A DNA stretch of 64,000 nucleotides from Acidobacteriota bacterium (GTDB taxonomy: Bacteria > Acidobacteriota > Vicinamibacteria > Marinacidobacterales > Marinacidobacteraceae). Position numbers and translations under genes: made by a program. The notes below the pieces were generated by a model. That model searched no databases. It was not told where the DNA came from and saw only the letters and a program-made list of their open reading frames with translations. Numbering within the stretch: the first letter of the stretch is position 1; the number at the start of each line of letters is the position of its first letter. The stretch lies in NCBI GenBank assembly GCA_022826195.1, contig JAJDVI010000001.1:1-64000 (forward strand), written 5' to 3'. Shown piece by piece: positions 4,914 to 17,307 of the stretch.

Positions 4914-5675
4914 ATGACTGGCACGCGGCACATCCTGACGACCCTGCTGGCGGCGGCCTGCCTGGCCGCGGGCACCACGGCGGCGGAGTCCGGGCAACCC
5001 CCGCGCCGGGGACCCTATCCGGACGCCTCCCAACGGAGCGTGCGCGACGCCCGATACGCCTTCTCGAGCTACGGCGGATTCCGCGTGCTGAATGTGACGA
5101 GCGATCTTTTCACCGCCAACGAGTTCGACTTCGGGATCACCGACGGTGACTTCCGGACCGGCAGCTTCGGCTTCGAGTTCGACTTCGCCGTCCTTCCCCG
5201 GGTGGACGTCTCGATCGGCATCGACAACGGAAACGCCGAGACCTACGGGTCCTACCTCGACCTCGTGTACGAAGACGGAGGAGAGATCGAACACTCGGCG
5301 CGGCTGGCCGTGACCGACCTGAGCCTCGGCGTGCGGCTGCGGCTGCTCGGCGGCGCGGCCCGGGTGCGCCCCTACCTGGTCGGCGGCTTTGCCGGGGCCT
5401 ACTACCGGTACACGGAGATCGGCGATTTCGTGGACTTCGAGACCGCGGACATCTACTACGACGTGTTCGAGGAGACGTCGTTCCTGCCCGGTTTCTTCGC
5501 CGGCGCGGGGGCCGACGTCGCCGTCATCCGGTTTCGTGAAGCCGGCAGCCTCGATCTCTTCGGCGAGTTCCGCTACGTCCGGTCCCAGGGCCGGCACACG
5601 GAGGGGTTCGACGGCTTCGGCGACCTCAAGCTCGACCGGTCGGGTGGCCTCTTCGGCATACGGGTCCGGTGGTAG
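4914..5675 (+). CDS. Outer-membrane beta-barrel protein
   Basis: This is a predicted outer-membrane barrel of unknown function. The 253-residue product starts at ATG 4914, eight bases after AAGGAG. It has a signal peptide (LLAAACLAAGTTAAES) and then a series of alternating, aromatic-rich beta strands (YAFSSYGGFRVLNV, FGFEFDFAVL, LVGGFAGAYYRY, LFGEFRYV). It ends in FGIRVRW, with the C-terminal aromatic residue typical of barrels inserted by BamA. The pattern resembles the OmpA-like or outer-membrane-protein beta-barrel (OMP_b-brl) families, but I cannot name a specific one. It is divergent from htrA and followed by a diverged paralogue, so the pair is a tandem duplication. Confidence 0.8.
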   Translation: MTGTRHILTTLLAAACLAAGTTAAESGQPPRRGPYPDASQRSVRDARYAFSSYGGFRVLNVTSDLFTANEFDFGITDGDFRTGSFGFEFDFAVLPRVDVSIGIDNGNAETYGSYLDLVYEDGGEIEHSARLAVTDLSLGVRLRLLGGAARVRPYLVGGFAGAYYRYTEIGDFVDFETADIYYDVFEETSFLPGFFAGAGADVAVIRFREAGSLDLFGEFRYVRSQGRHTEGFDGFGDLKLDRSGGLFGIRVRW

Positions 5676-5746
5676 CGCTCCTTGACCCGGGGCAACCGGA
5701 CAGCGCTGGCGCCGGCCCGACCGGCGCCGCCGGGAGGAACCTCACC

Positions 5747-6505
5747 ATGACCCGCTTCGGCCGAGGCCTGACCTGTCTCATCGCGGCCGCGTGTCTCGCG
5801 GCCACCCCGGTGGCCGCGGAAGAGGCGCAGCCCCCGCGCGGCAGCCGGGACCCCGACCGCTCGCGGTCCGCCGGCGCGCGGCCCCGCTACGGCTTCTCGG
5901 CGTTCGGCGGGTTTCGCGCGCTCCAGGTGGACAGCCGGCTCTTTGACGCCAACGAGGCGGAGTTCGGCCTCACGGAGGACGATTTCCGATCGGGGCGCCT
6001 GGGGTTCGAACTGGACTACGCGCTGCTGCCCATGCTGGAGATCGTCGTCGGGTTCGATACCGGCCAGGCAGAGGTTGATGGGAACTACCTGGACCTGGTC
6101 TACGAAGATGGGTCCGAGATCGAACACTCGGCCTTGCTCAGCCTGACCGACTAGACGCTCGGCGTCCGCATCCGGCCCTTTCAGCAAGGACGAGTGAGTC
6201 CCTACGTCGTGTTCGGCCTGGCCCGGACGCACTACAAGTACTCGGAACAGGGCGAGTTCGTGAACTTCGAGAACTTCGACATCTACTACGACGAACTCGA
6301 AGAGCGCTCTTCCTTCACGGGGTTCTTCGCCGGCGCGGGGTTCGACTTCGCGGTGGTCCGGATGCCCTTCGGGCGGCGGCTCGATGCCTTCGGCGAGTTC
6401 CGCTACTCCCGTGGGGAGGGCCGGCACCGCGGTGATTTCGCGGACTTCGGAGACCTCGGCGTGGCGCGCGGGGGCGCGCTCTTCGGCCTTCGTCTCCGCT
6501 TCTGA
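5747..6505 (+). pseudogene. Second outer-membrane barrel paralogue, interrupted by in-frame TAG
   Basis: This is a tandem copy of the preceding barrel gene, sharing the signal-peptide layout, YGFSAFGGFRALQV, LDLVYEDGSEIEHSA, FDIYYDE and the aromatic C-terminus (FGLRLRF). It starts at ATG 5747, eight bases after GGAGGA. A TAG at 6152-6154 interrupts the frame. Reading resumes in the same frame immediately afterwards (TLGVRIRPF, matching LSLGVRLRL of the paralogue), so it is a single nonsense codon and not a frameshift. The rest is intact, so the lesion is recent, a sequencing error, or a suppressed amber codon. Other genes in the window, including the paralogue next door, end in TAG, so the codon is not generally recoded. 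Confidence 0.75.
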
Positions 6506-6508
6506 CTG

Positions 6509-7348
6509 CTAGCCGCCCGAACGCGACGACACCGCGGCCGCTTCCGGGCGCCCACTGGCCCTCGCCTCGGCGAGGATCTCCAGCAGGGCCGGATGCAGCG
6601 GTCCGTTCGACACGGCGATGTTCGGCCCGCCGTTCGTGAACGGTCCACCGTCGAAGTCCGAAACGACCCCGCCGGCCTCCCGCACGATCACTTCCCCGGC
6701 GGCGGTGTCCCAGGCTCTGAGCGTCTCCTCCCAGAACGCATCGAGACGTCCCGCGGCCACGCAGCACAGGTCCAGCGCCGCCGAGCCGGCGCGGCGTACC
6801 GCCCGCACCCGCCGCATGATGCGGACGAACAGGTCCAGCGCCCGATCCATCGCCTCCGAGGAATAGGGGAACCCGGTGGCGAGCAGGGCGCGTTGCAGGT
6901 CCGCCGTCGGCGAGACCCGGATCGGAACGCCGTTCAGGTGCGCTCCGTGGCCCGCCTCCCCGGTGAACAGCTCCTCGCGGACGGGATCGAGAACGGCGCC
7001 GGCTACGACTTCCCCTCCTTCCTCGTACGCGATCGACACCGCGAACACCGGGAACCCGTGCGCGAAGTTGGTGGTCCCGTCCAGCGGGTCGACGATGAAG
7101 CGGCATCCGGTTCTGGAGCCTCCGACCAGACCGCGCTCCTCCGCCAGGATGGGCACGGAGGGCTCCAGCCGCTGCAGGCAGTCGACGATCGAGGTCTCGG
7201 CAGCGTGATCCACCGCGGTCACCAGGTCGATCGGGCCCTTGAGATCGACCCCGAAACCCCGCTCCGCGCGGGCGCGGTGGGCCTTCGAGACGACTTCGGC
7301 CCCGGCCTTTGCCGCTTCGACGCAGGCCCGCGCCGCGGCGCTCCTCAC
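6509..7348 (-). CDS. suhB: Inositol monophosphatase family protein (SuhB-like)
   Basis: This Mg-dependent phosphatase of the IMPase/FBPase/CysQ superfamily hydrolyses inositol 1-phosphate or related sugar phosphates; some members also act on ribosome maturation. The 279-residue protein has the metal-site motifs LAEERGL, VDPLDGTTNFAHG and AWDTAAGEVIVREAGG in the right order. The GTG start (7346-7348) overlaps the TGA of the upstream rsbW-like gene in GTGA, implying translational coupling. It is the third gene of rng-rsbW-suhB and converges on the broken barrel gene with only three bases between the stops. Confidence 0.9.
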   Translation of the reverse strand: MRSAAARACVEAAKAGAEVVSKAHRARAERGFGVDLKGPIDLVTAVDHAAETSIVDCLQRLEPSVPILAEERGLVGGSRTGCRFIVDPLDGTTNFAHGFPVFAVSIAYEEGGEVVAGAVLDPVREELFTGEAGHGAHLNGVPIRVSPTADLQRALLATGFPYSSEAMDRALDLFVRIMRRVRAVRRAGSAALDLCCVAAGRLDAFWEETLRAWDTAAGEVIVREAGGVVSDFDGGPFTNGGPNIAVSNGPLHPALLEILAEARASGRPEAAAVSSRSGG

Positions 7349-7800
7349 GGCGTCCGCGGCCCTTGCCGCTGGACCAGCACCACGCGCGTTCCTCCGCGGT
7401 CGGTGCGGGTCCAGGTCACGCCGTCCATGAACTGGCGCATGAAGAAGATGCCGCGCCCGCTGTCCTTGAGCAGGTTGTCCTCCAGCAGGGGATCCGGCAC
7501 CTCCGCCGTGTCGAAACCCTCTCCCTCGTCCTCCACTGCAATCCGGACCGCGGGACCGCCACCGCTGCCGTCGCGGGTCTCGATCTGAATCCGGAGGCGC
7601 TTCCTGGGATCCATGCGGTTTCCGTGACGCATCCCGTTGGTGACGGCCTCCCGGACCGCCGCCCCCATCCAGTGCGTGGCGTCCGGCTCGTAGCCGCACT
7701 GGGCACAGTGACGCTCGAAGACGCCCAGGACGACTTCAACCCATTCGATCCGCGTCTCGACGTCCAGCCGAACCGTCACGGGTTCGCTTGCCGGACTCAC
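7345..7800 (-). CDS. RsbW/SpoIIAB-type ATP-binding anti-sigma regulatory kinase
   Basis: This is a 151-residue single-domain HATPase_c_2 protein of the serine-kinase anti-sigma group, which phosphorylates a STAS-domain antagonist and sequesters a sigma factor or other partner. The ATP-site boxes look intact: N box REAVTNGMRHGN, G1 box VEDEGEGFD and G2 box GRGIFFMRQFMD. The GTG start overlaps the rng stop (GTGA, 7797-7800), and its own stop overlaps the suhB start, so all three should be co-translated. A STAS partner candidate is encoded at 16960. No PP2C phosphatase or sigma factor is seen in the window, so its target is unknown. Confidence 0.85.
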   Translation of the reverse strand: MSPASEPVTVRLDVETRIEWVEVVLGVFERHCAQCGYEPDATHWMGAAVREAVTNGMRHGNRMDPRKRLRIQIETRDGSGGGPAVRIAVEDEGEGFDTAEVPDPLLEDNLLKDSGRGIFFMRQFMDGVTWTRTDRGGTRVVLVQRQGPRTP

Positions 7801-9404
7801 GCGGACTTCAGGCTCGCTTCCGGCACTACCGGGTCTGCGAGGAACTCTCCGGCAGCGCCGGGTCGGGTTTCGGCGGCGCCGTCGGTCTCCCCCGCTCCCG
7901 GAACGAGTTCGAACTGCGGCTCCGGGAGCGCCGGGGCGTCCTCGATCGCCACCGGCCCCGCCACGATCGTCCGGATCTCCGGCAGGATGGCGGACCGGCG
8001 AATCGCCGACGCCACGGACGGCGCAGCGCGAATCACGAGTCCGGCGCTGAACTCTGCCGACTTCTTCTGGGCGCGAACGAGCACGTCCTGGCAAACGGCG
8101 CCCAGGGACCGGACCCGGCCCGATCCCCGGCACGCCGGGCAGGAGGCCAGCAGCGCGGACTCCAGCGACGGGCGCTCACGTTTGCGAGTGACGATGACGA
8201 GCCCGGCCCTCGACTCGGGCGGGGCGACCCGGGTGAAGGCCGGGTCCCGGCGCAGTTCGCCCTGCAGGGTGCGGAACACGCGGTCCCGGTTCCGGCCTTC
8301 CTTCATGTCGATGAAATCGATCACGATGATCCCGCCCAGGCCCCGCAACCGGAGTTGGCGCGCGGTCTCCACCGCCGCCTCGAGATTGGTGACGGTGTTC
8401 GTCTCGTCGCGCTCCCCGGTGTCCCCGGTGAAGCTCCCGGTGTTGACGTCCACGGCCACGAGGGCTTCCGTCTGATCGATGATGATCGACCCCCCCGAGG
8501 GGAGACGCACCCGGCGCCGGGTCGCCTGCTCGAAGGCCACCTCGACGCCGTATTCCTCGAAGATCGGGTAGTTCCGCGAGTAGAGCCGCACCTTGTGCTC
8601 CATTCCCGGGAGGAACTGGCGGATGAAGTTCACCATGCGTCCGTAGAGCGTTTCGCTGTCCACCCGGATGACGCTGAACCCCGAGGACAGCACGTCCCGG
8701 ATGTAGCGGAACACCATCGGCACCTCGGCCCGGAGGCAGGCCGGCGGCCCGGAGAGACTCTCTTTCCGGATCTCGGTCCAGTCGGCCTCGAGACGCGCAA
8801 TGTCCGCGGACAGCGTCTCCTCGTCGCGCTGTTCCGCCGTGGAACGCGCCACCCACTCTCCTTTCAGCGTGCTCCGGCGCTCGATGAGCGCCGCAATGCG
8901 AAGCTGCTCCCGTGGTCCCGCGGTGGCTCGCGAGGTGATGACCCCGGTGGGCGCCAGCGGCCGGAAATCGAAGAATCGCCCCTGGAGATTGAGGTCGCAG
9001 CTGACCTTGTAACCCTTCGGCCCGAGCGGCTCACGGACGACCTGCGCGAGTACGGGCTGTCCGGCGCGCAGAAGGTTCTCGAGCCGGAGTCCGGACGCTC
9101 CCGACCCGTTCCCGGTGCCGGCTCCGTCCTGCCCGGCTTCCGAAATGCGGCCTTCTTCCCGCCAGGCATCGAGCGCTCCCCGCGGAATCTGATCGATCTG
9201 CAGGAAGGCGTTGCGGTGCAGTCCGATGTCCAGGAAGGCCGCCTGGGTGCTGGGCACCACGCGCTGAACCCGTCCCCGGTAGATCCCGTGCAGGACGCTC
9301 TGCTCGGAGCGGTGTTCGACACCGAGTTCCACCACCACTCCGTCCTCGAGGAGCGCCATTCGGGTCTCGCCCGGAAGGCTCGTGACGATCAGCTCGCGGT
9401 GCAC
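7797..9404 (-). CDS. rng: Ribonuclease E/G family endoribonuclease
   Basis: This single-strand-specific endoribonuclease acts in rRNA 5' maturation and mRNA decay. The 535-residue protein begins at GTG 9402-9404 with the usual family start (HRELIVTSLPGETRMALLED). An S1 domain follows (HGIYRGRVQRVVPSTQAAFLDIG), then the catalytic DNase I-like part with acidic residues in VAVDVNTGSF and IVIDFIDM, then the zinc link in CPACRGSG. The length fits RNase G rather than RNase E, because there is no long degradosome tail. No good ribosome-binding site is visible at this start. An in-frame TTG at 9458 is an alternative, but it adds residues unlike the family. It follows the rod-shape operon in the same direction after a 132-base gap. 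Confidence 0.92.
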   Translation of the reverse strand: MHRELIVTSLPGETRMALLEDGVVVELGVEHRSEQSVLHGIYRGRVQRVVPSTQAAFLDIGLHRNAFLQIDQIPRGALDAWREEGRISEAGQDGAGTGNGSGASGLRLENLLRAGQPVLAQVVREPLGPKGYKVSCDLNLQGRFFDFRPLAPTGVITSRATAGPREQLRIAALIERRSTLKGEWVARSTAEQRDEETLSADIARLEADWTEIRKESLSGPPACLRAEVPMVFRYIRDVLSSGFSVIRVDSETLYGRMVNFIRQFLPGMEHKVRLYSRNYPIFEEYGVEVAFEQATRRRVRLPSGGSIIIDQTEALVAVDVNTGSFTGDTGERDETNTVTNLEAAVETARQLRLRGLGGIIVIDFIDMKEGRNRDRVFRTLQGELRRDPAFTRVAPPESRAGLVIVTRKRERPSLESALLASCPACRGSGRVRSLGAVCQDVLVRAQKKSAEFSAGLVIRAAPSVASAIRRSAILPEIRTIVAGPVAIEDAPALPEPQFELVPGAGETDGAAETRPGAAGEFLADPVVPEASLKSA

Positions 9405-9536: not shown

Positions 9537-10640
9537 CTAGGTAAGGAAGTTGCGGCGGCGGACCGACGCGGCCAGGCCGATGGCCGCCGCGGCGATCAGC
9601 AGCGAGTTGCCTCCGTAACTCATGAACGGCAGGGGGAACCCCTTGATGGGGACGATCCCCGCCACCATCGCGATGTTGTAGAGCGCCTGGAGATGGAGCA
9701 TGAGAAAGAACCCGCCCACCATGAAGGCGCCTGTCGGGTCCTTGTTCTCGACCGCTTCCACCGCAATCTGGAGAAGTCGCAGGCCGAGCACGAGGTAGAG
9801 CGCCAGAACGACGACCACGCCCAGGAACCCGAACTCCTCGGCAAGCACCGCGAACACGAAGTCGGTGTGAGGAGCCGGGAGAAACTGGAGGCTGGTCTGC
9901 GGACCCTGAAGCCAGCCAGTGCCCAGGAGGCCTCCGGAACCGACGGCGATGGAAGCCTGCAGCGTCTGATATCCCGCCCCCAACGGATCGCTTTCCGGGT
10001 TCAGGAAGGAGAGGACCCGGACTCGCTGGTAGTCGCGCAGGCCGAAGACCCAGATCAGCGGGAGGGCCAGGACGGCGCTGCCGCTGGCGGCCAGCATCCA
10101 CTTGCGGGAGATCGTCACGCCGCTGAAGAACACCATCCCGACCCCGATGCCGAACAGGATCGCCGCGCTCCCGAGGTCGGGCTGCGCCGCCACCGCCAGC
10201 ACGAGAGCGCCGGACGCCGCGATCCACCCGACCGTGGCGCGGCGGCTCAGCGGCTCGTGCCGGGAGCGGGCGATCAGATGGGCCAGCAGGAGCACCAGGG
10301 AGATCTTCGCCAGCTCGCCGGGCTGCAGCGTCAGGGTGCCCACCTCGAGCCAGCGGCGGGTCCCCGCCCGCAGGGCGCCGGAAGTGATGGCGATCGCGCT
10401 GAGGCCGAGCGCCACCAGAAACAGCGCCGGGGACAACCGGATCAACTGGCGATGATCCATCCGGTACACGACCACTCCGACCCCGAGAGCAAGCCCGAGC
10501 CGGATGAGGTGCGCACCGAGCGTCGCTCCGGAGTCGACACCCCGCAGGGCGCTCTCCAGCAGCAGCACCGCAATCACGACCAGGAGCCCCACACAGCCGA
10601 GAAGCACCCGGTCGGCGCCCTCGCGGGCTCTCAGTTCCAT
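9537..10640 (-). CDS. rodA: Rod-shape peptidoglycan polymerase RodA
   Basis: This is a SEDS-family glycosyltransferase that polymerises lipid II during cell elongation, working with the class B PBP encoded just upstream. The 367-residue protein has about ten membrane segments and FtsW/RodA/SpoVE signatures: QPDLGSA, and near the C-terminus IVPIKGFPLPFMSYGG followed by a short basic tail. The ATG at 10638-10640 gives the usual family start. An in-frame GTG nine bases further upstream is possible. It lies 13 bases after mrdA, the last of five rod-system genes. Confidence 0.94.
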   Translation of the reverse strand: MELRAREGADRVLLGCVGLLVVIAVLLLESALRGVDSGATLGAHLIRLGLALGVGVVVYRMDHRQLIRLSPALFLVALGLSAIAITSGALRAGTRRWLEVGTLTLQPGELAKISLVLLLAHLIARSRHEPLSRRATVGWIAASGALVLAVAAQPDLGSAAILFGIGVGMVFFSGVTISRKWMLAASGSAVLALPLIWVFGLRDYQRVRVLSFLNPESDPLGAGYQTLQASIAVGSGGLLGTGWLQGPQTSLQFLPAPHTDFVFAVLAEEFGFLGVVVVLALYLVLGLRLLQIAVEAVENKDPTGAFMVGGFFLMLHLQALYNIAMVAGIVPIKGFPLPFMSYGGNSLLIAAAAIGLAASVRRRNFLT

Positions 10641-10653
10641 GGCGCGTACCGAC

Positions 10654-12429
10654 TCACTGGTCCACCCCTCCCCCGCCGGCCACCCGGGTCCCGGGTGCGT
10701 CCTCGAAGAAGGTGCGCAGGATCTCGCCTCCGATCGGCGCCGCCGCGGCTCCGCCGGCTCCCCCGTGTTCCACCACCACGGCAACCGCGATCTGCGGGTC
10801 GTCGAACGGCGCGAACCCCACGAACCAGGCGTGGGTGCGCAGCTCGTACGGCCGGTCCTCGTTGTTGGCGGCTACCAGGTTGGCGCTCGCCACCTGGGCC
10901 GTTCCGGTCTTTCCCGCCACCTCGGCGGCGGGCATCCGGGCCCGCCACGCCGTCCCCGACACCACCGCGTCCCGCATCCCGTCGCGGATCAGCTCGAAGT
11001 GCTCGGGCATGACTCCGCCCACCTGTTCGCCGGGTTCCATGCCGACCAGCCTCGGCGTCGGAAGGTCCCCTCCCGAGGCGATCGCCGCCGCCAGCCGGGC
11101 CATCTGGATCGGGGTCACCGAAACGGCTCCCTGGCCGACGGAGACCGAGGCCGTCTCGCTGGCGTACCAACGCTCTCCCATGGCCCGGCGCTTCCATTCG
11201 CGGGTCGGAACGAGCCCGGTCGATTCGTTCCTGAGATCCACGCCGGTCGGCGCCCCAAGGCCGAAGGCCCGGGCGTAGGACGCGATGACGTCCACGTCGA
11301 GGGCTTCCGACAGGCGGTAGAAGAACACGTTGCACGACTTCGAGATGGCTTCGCGAAGCGTCAGGGCGCCGTGACCCTGGGTGCGGTGGCAGTGGAAGGT
11401 CCGGCCGGCCACCCGGGCCCGGCCGTTGCAGGTGATGCGGGTTTCGGGCCCCACCACGCCCTCGGCCAGCCCCGCGGCCGCGGCAACCAGCTTGAAGGCC
11501 GACCCGGGCGGGTAGCGGCCCTGCACCGCCCGGTTGAGCAGGGGAGTCGCGCTGTCGGCGAGCATTTCCCGGAACCTTCCGGCGTCGCCGCGAAAATCCT
11601 CGGGGTTCTCCGCCGGGTAGCTGCCCAGTCCGAGCACCTCGCCGGTCCGCACGTCGAGGGCCACGAAGGCTCCGCGGTGTTCTCCGAACGCGCCGTGGGC
11701 CGCTTCCTGGATGCCGCCGAGGACGTTGAGCTGCAGCGTTTCGCCGCGTACCGGTTCCGTCCTTCGCAGCCCGCCGGAGACCAGGACTCGCTGGCGGCTG
11801 TCCACCACCCGGTCCAGGTATCCGTCGGCGCCGACCAGCGTCGCGTTGTAGACGCGTTCGATCCCGTCCTGCCCGACGAGGTCCCCCGACGCCGCGGTAA
11901 CGAACTCCTCGAGCAGCAACTGCGCCGCCGTGACCTCGCCCACGTACCCCAGGAGGTGCGCGGTCGCCTGGCCGAGCGGGTAGTCCCGCGCCGGGACGAA
12001 CTCCACCCGGACTCCCGGGAGTTCCCGCCGGCGGGCCTCGAAGAACGCCGCTTCGGCGAACGGTATCCCGGAGCGCACCACCGCCGGGCCACGCGCCGCG
12101 CGCGCCTCCAGGCCGGCGCGGTCCTCGTCCTCGACCTCGAGGAGTCCGAGGTCCTCGAGGTGGCGGAGTCCCGCACTGTCGGCGAGGAGCGTGAACGACG
12201 GCTCGCTGCGGGCGAGGACCTCCCCACCCCGGTCCACCACGAGTCCGCGGGGAGCGCGGCGGCGCTCGGTCTGGAGGTAGTTGTCCCGGGCCAGGATGCT
12301 GAACTCCTCGCCCCGCACGATCTGGAGGTGCCAGAAGCGGACGGTCAACAGGATGACGAACGCCCAGAGCGGGTAGCGCGCCAGCGACAGGCGGCGCCGG
12401 ATGCGGGCGAGATACTCGGCGTGGATCAC
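10654..12429 (-). CDS. mrdA: Penicillin-binding protein 2 (elongasome transpeptidase)
   Basis: This is the monofunctional class B transpeptidase that cross-links new peptidoglycan during elongation, paired with RodA. In 591 residues there is one N-terminal membrane anchor (about residues 18-36), the PBP dimerisation domain, and a transpeptidase domain with SAFK (about 309), SCN (about 363) and KTGTAQ (about 505). It starts with GTG (12427-12429), preceded by GGGAGGGAAGG about eight bases upstream, 28 bases after mreD. The alanine- and glycine-rich C-terminus, after the last beta strand, is unremarkable. Confidence 0.95.
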   Translation of the reverse strand: MIHAEYLARIRRRLSLARYPLWAFVILLTVRFWHLQIVRGEEFSILARDNYLQTERRRAPRGLVVDRGGEVLARSEPSFTLLADSAGLRHLEDLGLLEVEDEDRAGLEARAARGPAVVRSGIPFAEAAFFEARRRELPGVRVEFVPARDYPLGQATAHLLGYVGEVTAAQLLLEEFVTAASGDLVGQDGIERVYNATLVGADGYLDRVVDSRQRVLVSGGLRRTEPVRGETLQLNVLGGIQEAAHGAFGEHRGAFVALDVRTGEVLGLGSYPAENPEDFRGDAGRFREMLADSATPLLNRAVQGRYPPGSAFKLVAAAAGLAEGVVGPETRITCNGRARVAGRTFHCHRTQGHGALTLREAISKSCNVFFYRLSEALDVDVIASYARAFGLGAPTGVDLRNESTGLVPTREWKRRAMGERWYASETASVSVGQGAVSVTPIQMARLAAAIASGGDLPTPRLVGMEPGEQVGGVMPEHFELIRDGMRDAVVSGTAWRARMPAAEVAGKTGTAQVASANLVAANNEDRPYELRTHAWFVGFAPFDDPQIAVAVVVEHGGAGGAAAAPIGGEILRTFFEDAPGTRVAGGGGVDQ

Positions 12430-12457
12430 GAAGCGCCTTCCCTCCCCGCGAAGCGCG

Positions 12458-12943
12458 TCATGGCGCCCGGTACTCCGTGGGCCGCGACCGCAGGAAACGG
12501 ATCACCAGCAGTCCGTAGATCACGGTGATGGGGATCCCGAACCCGGCCGTCCCCAGTTCGAGAGCGGGAATCGTGGTGAATCCGGCGATTTCACCAAGGG
12601 CCCAGAGAATCGCCAGATCGGCGGCGGCGGCGAACACGAGGAGCACCGGGATTCCGGCCCGGGTGTCCAGTGGAGGGCGCTCACGGGCGCGCGCCGCCAG
12701 GAAGACGACCAGGGGTTTGGAAAAACCGTTCATCCCCAGCAGGCCACCGGAGAAGGAGTCCTGCAGGAGCCCCGTCACCAGCCCGAATCCAATGGCGGGA
12801 CCGGTCCCCGCGAGCAACGCCACCGCCGCCGCGGTGGCGAGCAGAAAATCCGGCGTGACCCCGTCGCCCACGGTGAGGGGCCAGACCGCGGTCTGGAGCA
12901 GGAAAGCGGCAACCACCGCGAGGGCGGCTCGCACATAACTCAT
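12458..12943 (-). CDS. mreD: Rod shape-determining protein MreD
   Basis: This is a 161-residue inner-membrane protein of the MreD family with five to six hydrophobic segments and the typical GLLQDSFSGGLLGMNGFSK stretch (family pattern GLxxDxxxxxxLGxxxxxx). It links MreC with PBP2/RodA in the elongasome. It starts at ATG 12941-12943, ten bases after the mreC stop. Confidence 0.92.
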   Translation of the reverse strand: MSYVRAALAVVAAFLLQTAVWPLTVGDGVTPDFLLATAAAVALLAGTGPAIGFGLVTGLLQDSFSGGLLGMNGFSKPLVVFLAARARERPPLDTRAGIPVLLVFAAAADLAILWALGEIAGFTTIPALELGTAGFGIPITVIYGLLVIRFLRSRPTEYRAP

Positions 12944-12952
12944 GACACGGCG

Positions 12953-13780
12953 TCAGGGTTGCGGGGCCAGCCCGGAATCGTCCCGGCGCGGCAGCACGAA
13001 CACCCGTTCCAGGGTGTCGAAATCCACGGCCGGCTCGACGGCGATCTCGAGGAGCAGGCCGGCGCCCTCGTGGACCGCGGACACGCGCCCGACCAGGAGC
13101 CCCTTCGGGTAGAGCTCGTCGAGCCCGCTGGAAATCACCTCTTCGCCGATCGCGATCGCCTGCCCCACCGGCACGAAATGGAGCCGGTAGCCGGCCTCTC
13201 CGTCAGCGGCACGGACCACCCCGCGGGTTCGGCTCGCGGAGGTGATGACCGCAACGGCCGCGGTGGAAGCCGACAGCAGCTCGATCTGGCTGACCCCGGG
13301 CCCCACCGCCACGACCCGCCCCGCGAGTCCGGTCGCCGTCATCACCGGGGCATCCCGCTCGACCCCGTGCCGGCTGCCCCGGTTCACGGTGACGGTGCGG
13401 TCGAGCGGCGACGCGCTGACGCCCACGACCTCGCCGGCAACCGGCTCGCCGAGGTCCATCGCCGCGGCGTCCAGGTCCGTGAACCCGCGCGCCCGCTCGA
13501 GCATGCCCCGCTGGACGGTCAGTTCCCACTCCAGCCGGGCCACCCGGTCGCGCAACTCGTCGCGGGCCAGCCGCATCTCGTGCGCCTCCCCCACGGTCTC
13601 CACCCACGACGAGACCGCGCGGGTGGAGCCCAGCACCAGGCTCTGCCCCCCGCCGAACACCGCGGCCAGGCCGTCCCGGATCGGAAAACTGATCCCGCTC
13701 CGCACCTGAAAGGTCAGTCCCAGGAAGTTCGCGGCCAACACGATCCCCAGGAGGATTCCGTGGCCGCGTTTCCCGGGCAC
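12953..13780 (-). CDS. mreC: Rod shape-determining protein MreC
   Basis: This periplasmic scaffold activates PBP2 and is anchored by one N-terminal membrane segment (about residues 8-25). A coiled coil follows (about 62-95, rich in Arg/Glu/Leu), then the paired beta-barrel MreC domain with VNRGSRHGVERDAPVM and YPKGLLVGRV motifs. It is 275 residues, normal for the family. The start is GTG 13778-13780, with no close ribosome-binding site except AAGGAG 17 bases upstream. It lies 60 bases downstream of mreB. Confidence 0.93.
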   Translation of the reverse strand: MPGKRGHGILLGIVLAANFLGLTFQVRSGISFPIRDGLAAVFGGGQSLVLGSTRAVSSWVETVGEAHEMRLARDELRDRVARLEWELTVQRGMLERARGFTDLDAAAMDLGEPVAGEVVGVSASPLDRTVTVNRGSRHGVERDAPVMTATGLAGRVVAVGPGVSQIELLSASTAAVAVITSASRTRGVVRAADGEAGYRLHFVPVGQAIAIGEEVISSGLDELYPKGLLVGRVSAVHEGAGLLLEIAVEPAVDFDTLERVFVLPRRDDSGLAPQP

Positions 13781-13840
13781 CGGTTCGCTGGTCTCGCTCC
13801 TTCAGGTCAACGTTCGCGATTGCATGTTAGCCCGGCGCCG

Positions 13841-14869
13841 TCACACGTCGTGCCGGGACACCTGCTGGAGCAGGTCCATGCGCTCGAGCATGACGCCGGC
13901 CCCGTTCACGACGCAGTCGAGCGGGTGCTCCGCCACCTTGACGGCCAGGTTCGTCTCGTCGGCGAGGAGTTCGGGCAGCCCTTCGAGGAGCGCGCCCCCA
14001 CCGGTCAGCAGGATGCCGTTCTCCACGAGGTCCGCGGAGAGTTCGGGCTCCACCTTTTCGAGGACGTTCGCGACTGCGGTGAGGAGCTGATGCAGCGGAC
14101 CGCTCAGGCCTTCCCGGATGTCCTGATCGGTCACCGTCAGCGTGGCCGGGGATAGCCGCGAGAGGTCCCGGCCGCGGATTTCCATGCTCCGCGCCTGCAT
14201 TCCGGGCCGGGCGCTGCCGAGGGCCATCTTGATCCGCTCGCCGGTCCGCTCGCCCACGAGCAGTCCGTGGGCCCGCCGCAGGTGTTCGATGATCCCCTGG
14301 GTGAACATGTCGCCCGCGGCGCGCACCGACGTTCCCGCGGCGATCCCCGACAGCGAGATGACCGCGATGTCGGTCGTGCCGCCGCCGATGTCCACCACGC
14401 AGCAGCCGATGGGCGTCGTGACGTCGAGTCCCGCGCCGATGGCGGCCGCGATCGGCTGCTGGACCAGGAACACCTCGCTGGCCCGCGCCCGGAGCACGCT
14501 GTCGCGGACCGCGCGCCGCTCCACGGGGGTGATCCTGAGCGGCACGCCGACCACCATGCGCGGGGCCGCCCAGCGGCGCCGTCCCAGGGCCTTCTGGACG
14601 AAGTGGCTGATCATCCGCTCCGCCGCCTCGAAGTCGGCGATGACCCCGTCCTGCATCGGACGGATCGCCTTGATGTGGTCGGGGGTCTTGCCGACCATGT
14701 CGTACGCCTCCGCCCCGACCGCCTCGACCCGTTTGGTGTTGGTGTTCATGGCCACCACGGACGGCTCGCGGAGGATGATGCCCGAGTCCTGGGTATAGAT
14801 GAGGGTGTTGGCGGTTCCGAGATCGACCGCGAGATCGACGGAGAAGAGACTGAGTAGGTATTTGAGCAT
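13841..14869 (-). CDS. mreB: Rod shape-determining actin homologue MreB
   Basis: This is a bacterial actin that forms membrane-bound filaments directing the elongasome. The 342-residue protein has all nucleotide-binding signatures: phosphate-1 DLGTANTLIY (residues 17-26), phosphate-2 VVDIGGGTTDIAV and the adenosine motif LTGGGALL. The N-terminal amphipathic MLKYLLSLF is the membrane-binding helix. It is the first gene of mreB-mreC-mreD-mrdA-rodA, so the promoter should lie in 14870-15053. Confidence 0.97.
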   Translation of the reverse strand: MLKYLLSLFSVDLAVDLGTANTLIYTQDSGIILREPSVVAMNTNTKRVEAVGAEAYDMVGKTPDHIKAIRPMQDGVIADFEAAERMISHFVQKALGRRRWAAPRMVVGVPLRITPVERRAVRDSVLRARASEVFLVQQPIAAAIGAGLDVTTPIGCCVVDIGGGTTDIAVISLSGIAAGTSVRAAGDMFTQGIIEHLRRAHGLLVGERTGERIKMALGSARPGMQARSMEIRGRDLSRLSPATLTVTDQDIREGLSGPLHQLLTAVANVLEKVEPELSADLVENGILLTGGGALLEGLPELLADETNLAVKVAEHPLDCVVNGAGVMLERMDLLQQVSRHDV

Positions 14870-15053: not shown

Positions 15054-16955
15054 ATGATCCTCGAGTATTTCCGCAACCGCCGATCCATCGGCTGGTTCGT
15101 CGGCGCCGGCCTGCTCGGGCTGGTGATTCTGGCGTTCGTCGCCCTCTATTTCCCGGACTTCATGGGAGATCCGGCCACCGCCGCGATGCGCCGCGGCGTC
15201 GCCTGGGTGGACGGCGAAGCCATCCCGGCATCGACCTTCCTGGACCGCTACCGGAACGTGGCGCGCATGTACCAGGAACAGAGCGGCGGCGACTTCTCTC
15301 CCGCCCTGGCCCGGCAACTCGGCATTCCGGAGCAGGTCGTGGGCGAGCTGGTGCGTAGCCGGGTGCTCGTCCGGGAGGCGGAACGCCTCGGGATCGAGGT
15401 CACCAACACCGAAGTCGGAACCAGCATCGCCACCTCTCCCACGTTTCAGGAGAACGGGGTCTTCATCGGCCGGGACGCCTACCTCGCCATGCTGCGCGCC
15501 GCCCGGCTGAACCCGCGGGACTTCGAGGACTCGATCCGGTCGGACCTGATGACGGAGAAGCTCCGGTCGCTGATCACCGAGTCGCCGCACGTGTCCGACC
15601 TGGAACTGATGGAGGAATACCGGCGCCGCAACGAGAACGCCTCGCTCGACGTCTGGTTCCTGAGCACCGGCAGCCGGCGCGGCGAGGTGGAGGTCACCGA
15701 GGCGGACGCCCGCGAGCGCTACGAGGCCGACCCGGCGGCGTTCGAGGTCCCGGAGCAGCGGCGGATCCGCTACCTGACGCTTTCGGAGCAGATCCTCGCC
15801 GAGGAGGTCTCGGTCCGGCAGCGCGAGATCCAGCGCTACTACAACCGGAACCTCTTCCAGTACCAGATGGGGGAGCAAGCGGAAGCCAGTCACATCCTGC
15901 TGCAGGCGGAGACGGAGGCGGACGAGGAGGCCACCCGCACCCTCGCGGCCCGTCTCGCCGAGCGGGCGCGGGGCGGCGAGGACTTCGCGGAACTGGCGCG
16001 GACCTATTCCGCTGACGAAGCGACCCGGGAAGCCGGGGGCGCCCTCGGAGTCTTCGGGCCGGAAGAGATGGTGCCCGAGTTCTCCGAAGCGGTCTTCAGC
16101 ATGATGCCGGGCGAGATCAGCGATCCCGTCCGCACCGACTACGGCTGGCACGTGGTCCGGCTCGACAGCCGGCAACCCGCGGAGACCCGGGAGCTGAGCG
16201 AAGTCGAGGGCGAGATCGAGAGCCGCCTGCGGCAGGAGAAGGCCGGCGACCTCCTCACGGAGCGGGCCCTCGCCCTCGAGGCGCGGGTCGGAGGCGCGGA
16301 TTCCCTCGACGAGCTGACGCGCGACCATCCCCTGCTCATTCCCCAGGAGTCGGACTTCTTCGCCGTCGGGGACCCCGTTGCCGGGGCCGGTTCGGGGGAG
16401 CTCTCCGCGCTCGCCTTCGAACTCGAGATCGGCGCTGTGGGAGGTCCGATCCGGCTGCCCACCGGTTACGCCTTCGTGGAAGTCCTCGAGGAACGGCCGC
16501 CCCACGTCCCCGCGTTCGAGGACATTCGCGAGCAGGTGATCGCCGAACTCGAGGAGGAGCGGGCCCGGTCCCTGGCCGAGGAGGCCGGACAGGCGCTGCG
16601 CGACCGGGTTGCCGAGGGCCGGACCGTCGAGACGGATCCGACGCCCCTGGAGCGCTGGTTCCGCGGCAGTCCGCTCGGGATCGCCGGGATGCTCCCCGAC
16701 CACGAGGAGACGGTCTTCGCGGCCGAGGTCGGAGACGTCGTCGGCCCCCTGGAGGCGGACCGCGGCTACGCCATCGTCCGGATCAACGCGAGAGAGGGTT
16801 TCGCCGAGGCGACCTACGAAGAGCAGAAGGAGCCCTTCCGGGCGCAGATGGCCGAAGAGAAGAAACAGCGGATCTGGGCCGCCTTCGTCGGGGCCGCGGG
16901 CGAGCGCTACGAGATCCGGATCGACCGCCAGGCGCTCAACGACCTGATCGGGTAG
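15054..16955 (+). CDS. ppiD: PpiD/SurA-type membrane-anchored peptidyl-prolyl isomerase
   Basis: This is a periplasmic folding factor with one N-terminal membrane anchor (about residues 13-34), a SurA/PpiD N-terminal chaperone domain (about 45-190) and one parvulin domain (about 275-370, with ASHILLQAE, FAELARTYS and GGALGVFGPEEMVPEF). A C-terminal substrate-binding part resembles the PpiD tail. At 633 residues it matches PpiD. It leads a plus-strand gene run in which the STAS gene begins four bases after its stop, so expression is probably shared. Confidence 0.9.
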   Translation: MILEYFRNRRSIGWFVGAGLLGLVILAFVALYFPDFMGDPATAAMRRGVAWVDGEAIPASTFLDRYRNVARMYQEQSGGDFSPALARQLGIPEQVVGELVRSRVLVREAERLGIEVTNTEVGTSIATSPTFQENGVFIGRDAYLAMLRAARLNPRDFEDSIRSDLMTEKLRSLITESPHVSDLELMEEYRRRNENASLDVWFLSTGSRRGEVEVTEADARERYEADPAAFEVPEQRRIRYLTLSEQILAEEVSVRQREIQRYYNRNLFQYQMGEQAEASHILLQAETEADEEATRTLAARLAERARGGEDFAELARTYSADEATREAGGALGVFGPEEMVPEFSEAVFSMMPGEISDPVRTDYGWHVVRLDSRQPAETRELSEVEGEIESRLRQEKAGDLLTERALALEARVGGADSLDELTRDHPLLIPQESDFFAVGDPVAGAGSGELSALAFELEIGAVGGPIRLPTGYAFVEVLEERPPHVPAFEDIREQVIAELEEERARSLAEEAGQALRDRVAEGRTVETDPTPLERWFRGSPLGIAGMLPDHEETVFAAEVGDVVGPLEADRGYAIVRINAREGFAEATYEEQKEPFRAQMAEEKKQRIWAAFVGAAGERYEIRIDRQALNDLIG

Positions 16956-16959
16956 TCCC

Positions 16960-17307
16960 ATGCAACTTGACCTGAGAGAGCGGGCCGGCGTCTCGCTGCT
17001 GCAACTGAATGGCCGCCTCGTGGACGGCCACGGTGACCAGGAGCTTCGGGAGGCGGTGGACGTGCTTCTCGACTCGGGCCGCACCCGCATCGTCGTCGAT
17101 CTCAGCGGGGTCAGCGCGATCGATAGCGCGGGCCTCGGCGAACTCGTCGCGTCCGCGCGGCGCGTCGCCCGCGCGGGCGGCGCCCTCAAGGCGCTCCATC
17201 CGCGGGAGCGCGTCGTCCACGTGATGAACGTCGCCCGGGTGCTGCCGCTGTTCGAGGTGTTCGAGACCGAGGACCAGGCGGTCGCCAGTTTCAGGACCGA
17301 CGCCTGA
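16960..17307 (+). CDS. STAS-domain anti-sigma factor antagonist
   Basis: This is a 115-residue stand-alone STAS protein of the SpoIIAA/RsbV class. It has the conserved phosphorylation segment AIDSAGLGELV, in which the serine (about residue 53) is the expected target of an RsbW-type kinase. The unphosphorylated form normally binds the kinase and frees a sigma factor. The obvious local partner is the kinase at 7345-7800, across the rod-shape operon. It lies between ppiD (4-base gap) and moeA (7-base gap). Confidence 0.87.
   Translation: MQLDLRERAGVSLLQLNGRLVDGHGDQELREAVDVLLDSGRTRIVVDLSGVSAIDSAGLGELVASARRVARAGGALKALHPRERVVHVMNVARVLPLFEVFETEDQAVASFRTDA

What the first reader, a model, noticed from the sequence alone, without database searches (positions are those of the whole stretch)
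6509..9404. RNase G, RsbW-type kinase and SuhB fused by 4-bp overlaps
Both junctions in rng-rsbW-suhB are GTGA overlaps, so the kinase should be made in step with a ribonuclease and a phosphatase, each of which has been tied to rRNA maturation in other bacteria. RsbW kinases normally sit next to sigma factors or STAS genes. A partner-switching link to RNA processing is an untested idea.
Basis: partly seen in the sequence, partly recalled or inferred. Interest (0 to 1): 0.55.

Follow-up and report, generated by a model that had tools for sequence, protein, structure and literature searches.

The report
Partner-switch kinase beside RNase G gene
An acidobacterial regulatory kinase of a well-known type sits tightly between an RNA-cutting enzyme gene and a sugar-phosphatase gene, but comparison with relatives suggests that genes once lying in between were lost, so the position is no sign of a role in RNA processing.

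Summary
On the minus strand rng (9404-7797), an RsbW/SpoIIAB-type kinase (7800-7345) and suhB (7348-6509) are joined by two GTGA overlaps. All three genes are under purifying selection.

The RNA-processing reading is not supported. The window comes from Acidobacteriota. The rng-kinase contact occurs in 10 of 10 genomes of the window's family. In a phylum sample, only the window's genome among 87 with both genes has them within 2 kb. A genome of the sister family shows the likely older order: mreBCD-pbp2-rodA-rng, then two genes plus a phosphoesterase-aroK-aroA block, then the kinase and suhB. The window's family lacks that block here.

What is old is kinase-suhB: they lie within 150 bp in 71 of 76 loci. 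In sister lineages the kinase is followed directly by a STAS gene instead (17 of 80 named loci), the classic RsbW-RsbV pair.

The window's genome keeps two STAS genes of that same clade. One is in this window (16960-17307, +).

Best reading: an ordinary partner-switch kinase that parted from its STAS gene, gained suhB as neighbour, and was later brought against rng by gene loss. Its output target is unknown. Kinase-suhB coupling is the one open question.

The parts
7797..9404 (-). rng, Rne/Rng-family ribonuclease, last gene of the mreBCD-pbp2-rodA-rng run
   Evidence: family motifs DVN, IDFID and CPAC read in the translation (motif roles recalled)
7345..7800 (-). RsbW/SpoIIAB-type serine kinase (HATPase_c_2), E51/N55 and D-x-G-x-G, GRG boxes intact
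6509..7348 (-). suhB, inositol-monophosphatase family, catalytic motifs DPLDGT and WDTAAG intact
7797..7800 (-). GTGA overlap rng/kinase; the point where the sister family has two genes and the phosphoesterase-aroK-aroA block
7345..7348 (-). GTGA overlap kinase/suhB
16960..17307 (+). STAS-domain-only protein (RsbV/SpoIIAA type), IDS56AGLG phosphorylation motif; candidate substrate of the kinase, 9.2 kb away
9537..14869 (-). rodA, pbp2, mreD, mreC, mreB upstream on the same strand; 132 bp between rodA and rng
   Evidence: rodA by NCBIfam; the others named from recalled resemblance and blast-conserved order
15054..16955 (+). PpiD/SurA-like gene (name recalled) directly before the STAS gene
4917..6505 (+). 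two outer-membrane-barrel-like genes, convergent with suhB; probably related to the barrel gene that follows suhB in the class
   Evidence: function inferred from sequence only

Best explanation
The middle gene encodes the serine kinase of a partner-switching module (RsbW/SpoIIAB type). It most likely phosphorylates the conserved serine of one or both STAS proteins of its own clade, at C32:16960-17307 (this window) and C4:27737-28072. SpoIIE-type phosphatases reverse this. Unphosphorylated STAS then pulls the kinase off an unknown target. Its place between rng and suhB is a product of genome history. The kinase-STAS pair is seen in other acidobacterial lineages. In the window's class the STAS gene lies elsewhere and suhB follows the kinase. 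In the window's family the phosphoesterase-aroK-aroA block and two further genes are missing between rng and the kinase, so the kinase and suhB became the tail of the mre-rodA-rng run. Shown: orthology, gene orders, intact kinase and STAS motifs, purifying selection. Inferred: the phosphorylation, the partner assignment, the direction of the rearrangements, co-transcription with rng.
For: Order STAS-ppiD | mreBCD-pbp2-rodA-rng - GT9-like - 124 aa - MPE-aroK-aroA | KIN-suhB-barrel-degP on one contig of sister-family genome G010, against rng-KIN-suhB in 10 of 10 family genomes. The family's only aroA hit lies elsewhere and is about 31% identical to class aroA, against about 48% for G010's. KIN directly followed by STAS in 17 of 80 named loci and by suhB in the class. 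KIN orthologues form one clade apart from the genome's two other HATPases. Both STAS genes fall in the KIN-adjacent STAS clade, apart from STAS C9, C12 and C95. Profile hits to RsbW 6m36 and SpoIIAB 1til and, for the STAS, to TM1442 and SpoIIAA. Four SpoIIE phosphatases in the genome. Only 1 of 87 genomes with both genes has them within 2 kb.
Against: No biochemical test. The STAS clade separation is modestly supported (89/84), its placing of the window STAS beside two KIN-adjacent rows is weak (87/61), and long branches meet there. The intermediate order rests on one genome (G010); G013 shows only the aroA-KIN-suhB-barrel-degP half. Which order is older is parsimony. The kinase-suhB coupling, old and tight, is not explained by this account.
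Confidence: 0.75

Rival explanations
1. The kinase and SuhB work together: SuhB (or its sugar-phosphate chemistry) is an input or output of the partner switch, which is why the pair stays coupled across the class and moved together.
For: Kinase-suhB distance under 150 bp in 71 of 76 loci, 26 of 76 with a possible 4-bp overlap start; the pair stays together in the family although aroA is no longer beside it.
Against: Much of the surrounding order (phosphoesterase-aroK-aroA, barrel, DedA, GT2) is conserved too, so slow rearrangement may suffice; in family f3 suhB lies 1.6-6 kb from the kinase; kinase-STAS lineages have no suhB there.
Confidence: 0.12
2. One reading: a partner switch tied to RNA processing, the kinase controlling RNase G and/or SuhB in rRNA maturation.
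For: Two GTGA overlaps; E. coli SuhB is a Nus-complex member in rRNA synthesis (PMC6614801 passages) and RNase G acts in 16S 5' maturation (reference titles in PMC4319933).
Against: rng contact is confined to one family and goes with absence of a gene block; K251 of the E. coli NusA contact is Pro here, L254 kept; two STAS relatives provide conventional partners.
Confidence: 0.04
3. The kinase is an anti-sigma factor of a SigB/F/G-type sigma factor encoded elsewhere (a special case of the best explanation, with the target named).
For: Closest solved relatives are RsbW and SpoIIAB; several sigma-70 family matches exist in nearly every genome.
Against: 0 of 40 genomes have a SigBFG match over the curated cut-off, where 1 of 14 control genomes has one; no sigma gene was identified among the blast-named neighbours, though many neighbouring ORFs were not annotated.
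Confidence: 0.3

Closest known systems
RsbW / SpoIIAB anti-sigma serine kinases (Bacillus)
   Same: Fold family, length, ExxxN, DxGxG and GRG-type boxes; STAS partner adjacent in sister lineages
   Different: No SigB/F gene beside it and none over the cut-off in 40 relatives; neighbours are rng and suhB
Chlamydial RsbW with RsbV1 and RsbV2
   Same: One kinase with two STAS-only proteins and no SigB target (PMC8256260, passages); here too two clade members remain and some relatives carry tandem STAS genes
   Different: Target unknown here
E. coli mre operon with rng
   Same: rng lies in the mre operon (PMC4319933, passages)
   Different: E. coli has yhdE between them; no kinase or suhB is described there
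E. coli SuhB, Nus factor
   Same: 41% identical, catalytic residues kept
   Different: K251 of the NusA-AR2 contact not kept; E. coli suhB has other neighbours, trmJ divergent and yfhR after it

Membership tests
RsbW/SpoIIAB partner-switch kinase | HATPase_c_2 domain with intact ATP-site boxes and kinase Glu/Asn | tested here: met
   (invariant R48,E49,N53,H57,G58,N59,D88,G90,G92 in A1 numbering); roles of residues recalled
RsbW/SpoIIAB partner-switch kinase | Cognate STAS protein with D-S-x-G serine encoded beside it or in the genome | tested here: met
   beside orthologues in 17 of 80 named loci; two clade members in the own genome
RsbW/SpoIIAB partner-switch kinase | Meets the curated cut-off of a named RsbW/SpoIIAB model | tested here: not met
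   43.2 bits against a cut-off of 135 for TIGR01925; 34.9 against 145 for PRK04069: works like one and belongs to the wider HATPase_c_2 kind, but is not an equivalog of either
RsbW/SpoIIAB partner-switch kinase | Sigma factor of B/F/G type as target | tested here: inconclusive
   0 of 40 genomes over the TIGR02980 cut-off; other sigma factors not excluded
RsbW/SpoIIAB partner-switch kinase | Phosphorylates the STAS serine | not testable with these tools
   needs protein work
RNase E/G | RNase_E_G catalytic domain | tested here: met
   TIGR00757 353 bits over the 325.95 cut-off
E. coli-type SuhB (Nus factor) | NusA-AR2 contact residues K251 and L254 | tested here: not met
   L254 kept, K251 is Pro in the window protein
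Inositol monophosphatase family | Inositol_P domain with DPxDGT and WDxAAG | tested here: met
Operon conserved across a clade wider than the family (rng-kinase-suhB) | Same order in relatives beyond the family | tested here: not met
   0 of 86 other genomes with both genes in the phylum sample have rng within 2 kb of the kinase

The most novel reading that the evidence does not exclude
In the class that holds the window (Vicinamibacteria by many of the relatives' names) the partner-switch kinase has changed its genetic partner from STAS to suhB, and the inositol-phosphatase-family enzyme is a working part of the switch (a target, or a metabolic sensor feeding it), with STAS proteins acting in trans.
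Probability: 0.1. Interest if true: 0.6.

Novelty: new member of a known kind. Interest (0 to 1): 0.25.

Why it matters
It shows how a tight operon with overlapping genes can arise by loss of the genes in between and mimic a functional unit. It also charts, across Acidobacteriota, a partner-switch kinase that is found with its STAS gene in some lineages and with suhB in others. If suhB proves functional in the switch, that would be a new kind of partner.

Tried and rejected
RNA-processing link: rejected as the leading reading because rng contact is confined to one family and explained by a missing block. Chance adjacency of kinase and suhB: rejected by class-wide order. Window STAS as sole partner: not claimed, because the C4 STAS shares synteny with the class-wide purD-STAS-GT locus and lies in the same clade. 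Simple deletion with relocation of aroA: left open, because aroK sits beside the divergent aroA in the family, so either a divergent relocated pair or a replacement. Structure prediction was not run; sequence-profile matches to solved RsbW and SpoIIAB sufficed. Paper searches for RsbW + partner switching + Acidobacteria, for inositol monophosphatase + anti-sigma + gene cluster + STAS and for gene order/aroA/Acidobacteria/rsbW, three of four gave no papers; SuhB + RNase G + anti-sigma gave one Pseudomonas review, seen only in the listing.

Rows dropped: OWN_C42 and OWN_C6 STAS were left out of the STAS tree. Thirty loci without a suhB match and four without a start were not counted in the 76: 10 f3 loci with short flanks, 2 contig ends, 17 with STAS, 1 Bacteroidota. 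Some named loci and G-handle loci are probably the same contigs (equal contig lengths), so the 76 are not all independent. Alignment A1 holds one row twice. The KIN tree used a chosen subset of the loci. The count of 87 genomes was made by eye from the lists.

Full report
OBSERVATION. Domain searches agree: RNase_E_G, HATPase_c_2 and Inositol_P. Pairwise comparison with two congeners gives dN/dS well under 1 for all three. Four-base overlaps are ordinary here: two more occur in the first 24 kb. Upstream on the same strand lie rodA, pbp2 and mreDCB; 132 bp separate rodA from rng.

WHERE IT COMES FROM. Named relatives found with the kinase alignment are nearly all Acidobacteriota, many labelled Vicinamibacteria or Vicinamibacterales.

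HOW FAR THE ORDER IS CONSERVED. All 10 genomes of the family (own plus 9) have rng-kinase-suhB. The kinase/suhB overlap is kept in 9 of 10. The rng/kinase overlap is a feature of the genus: 8 of 8 by start context, while a second genus has an 18-bp gap and the third no 4-bp overlap start. Outside the family the kinase has no rng beside it in the loci examined. In a phylum sample of 139 genomes, 116 have a kinase match and 93 an rng match at strict thresholds; 87 have both (my count from the lists), and only the window's genome has them within 2 kb. Two genomes have them 12-14 kb apart.

WHAT LAY BETWEEN. In G010, a genome of the sister family in the same order, one contig reads STAS-ppiD | mreB-mreC-mreD-pbp2-rodA-rng, then a GT9-like frame and a 124-aa frame (labels recalled or by length), then phosphoesterase-aroK-aroA on the other strand, then kinase-suhB-barrel-degP. 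Removing the middle gives the window's order. The window's family has no aroA at this place. Its only aroA hit is on another contig beside an aroK, and is about 31% identical (median) to class aroA, where G010's is about 48%. So the simplest history is loss of the intervening block, which set the kinase against rng. That this happened in this direction is parsimony, resting on one genome with the full intermediate order.

WHAT THE KINASE SITS BESIDE ELSEWHERE. Among 80 named loci, gene clustering shows two arrangements. In most, aroA stands divergent and the kinase is followed by suhB and a barrel-like gene. In 17 the kinase is followed directly by a STAS gene; these include Blastocatellia, Pyrinomonadaceae, Acidobacteriaceae, Korobacteraceae and Polarisedimenticolaceae by record title or tree label, and in several Blastocatellia or Pyrinomonadaceae loci aroA is still divergent upstream. 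Three loci have two STAS genes in tandem. None of the 17 has a suhB match. Over 110 loci searched, 76 had both kinase and suhB in readable form; 71 of these lie under 150 bp apart and 26 could start suhB at a 4-bp overlap (30 without suhB match and 4 without start set aside). In family f3 suhB is 1.6-6 kb away.

THE STAS PARTNERS. The own genome has 7 STAS hits, 5 HATPase_c_2 hits and 4 SpoIIE hits. One complete SpoIIE-HATPase-STAS set lies on contig 12 and a HATPase-STAS pair on contig 9, apart from this locus. A STAS-only gene lies in this window at 16960-17307 on the plus strand, between a PpiD-like gene and moeA, with the motif IDSAGLG. In a tree it and a second STAS on contig 4 fall among the STAS genes found next to the kinase in sister lineages, apart from the contig 9, 12 and 95 STAS (44-row clade, 89/84). 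The contig 4 STAS is also syntenic with a STAS found beside purD and glycosyl-transfer genes across the class (purD, UbiA and GT names recalled). The kinase itself forms one clade with the STAS-adjacent kinases, apart from the two other HATPases of the genome (94/87). These are modest supports with long branches, as the tool warned.

MECHANISM. Solved relatives are RsbW and SpoIIAB for the kinase, and TM1442 and SpoIIAA for the STAS. The reviewed scheme (PMC8256260, passages) is that the kinase phosphorylates the STAS serine, a phosphatase reverses it, and free STAS draws the kinase off its target. All motif requirements that I could check are met. No SigB/F/G gene reaches the curated cut-off in 40 relatives, so the target is open: a housekeeping or other sigma factor, as in Chlamydia (same review), or a non-sigma output such as envelope polysaccharide, as for SypA (PMC4517449, passages). 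The STAS genes beside envelope and sugar-transfer genes hint at the latter; that is inference.

RNA PROCESSING. E. coli SuhB binds NusA-AR2; the K251A/L254A double change broke this (PMC6614801, passages). In the alignment L254 is kept and K251 is Pro in the window protein. RNase G in an mre operon is known from E. coli, with no kinase described there (PMC4319933, passages). With the missing-block account, nothing is left that points to RNA processing beyond possible shared transcription.

VERDICT. A new member of a known kind, with an instructive neighbourhood. The one unexplained point is why the kinase and suhB stay so close across the class.

Noticed in passing
window 5669-6505 (+): A barrel-like gene is split by one in-frame TAG; relative G004 (L158) has an open copy. 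Sequencing error or young pseudogene.
   Followed up: partly
window 16960-17307 (+): STAS-only gene directly after a PpiD/SurA-like gene, an arrangement seen in families f1-f3.
   Followed up: yes
L136, L141, L156: Kinase followed by two tandem STAS genes in Pyrinomonadaceae/Blastocatellia, with a receiver-like gene before the kinase in L136 and L141.
   Followed up: no
G000:C38:37390-39209: The family's aroA-aroK pair is very divergent from class aroA, and aroK lies in an open frame of 764-1202 aa in all 9 family genomes with a hit: possible fusion or replaced aro operon.
   Followed up: no
L185-L193: Class-wide purD | STAS - UbiA-like - GT locus: a STAS protein leading a sugar-transfer gene run.
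   Followed up: partly
G118:C100 and G152:C81: rng and the kinase lie 12-14 kb apart on one contig in another family.
   Followed up: no
G011, G029: G029 has no kinase match and G011 only a weak one, although both keep a STAS match of the ppiD type.
   Followed up: no
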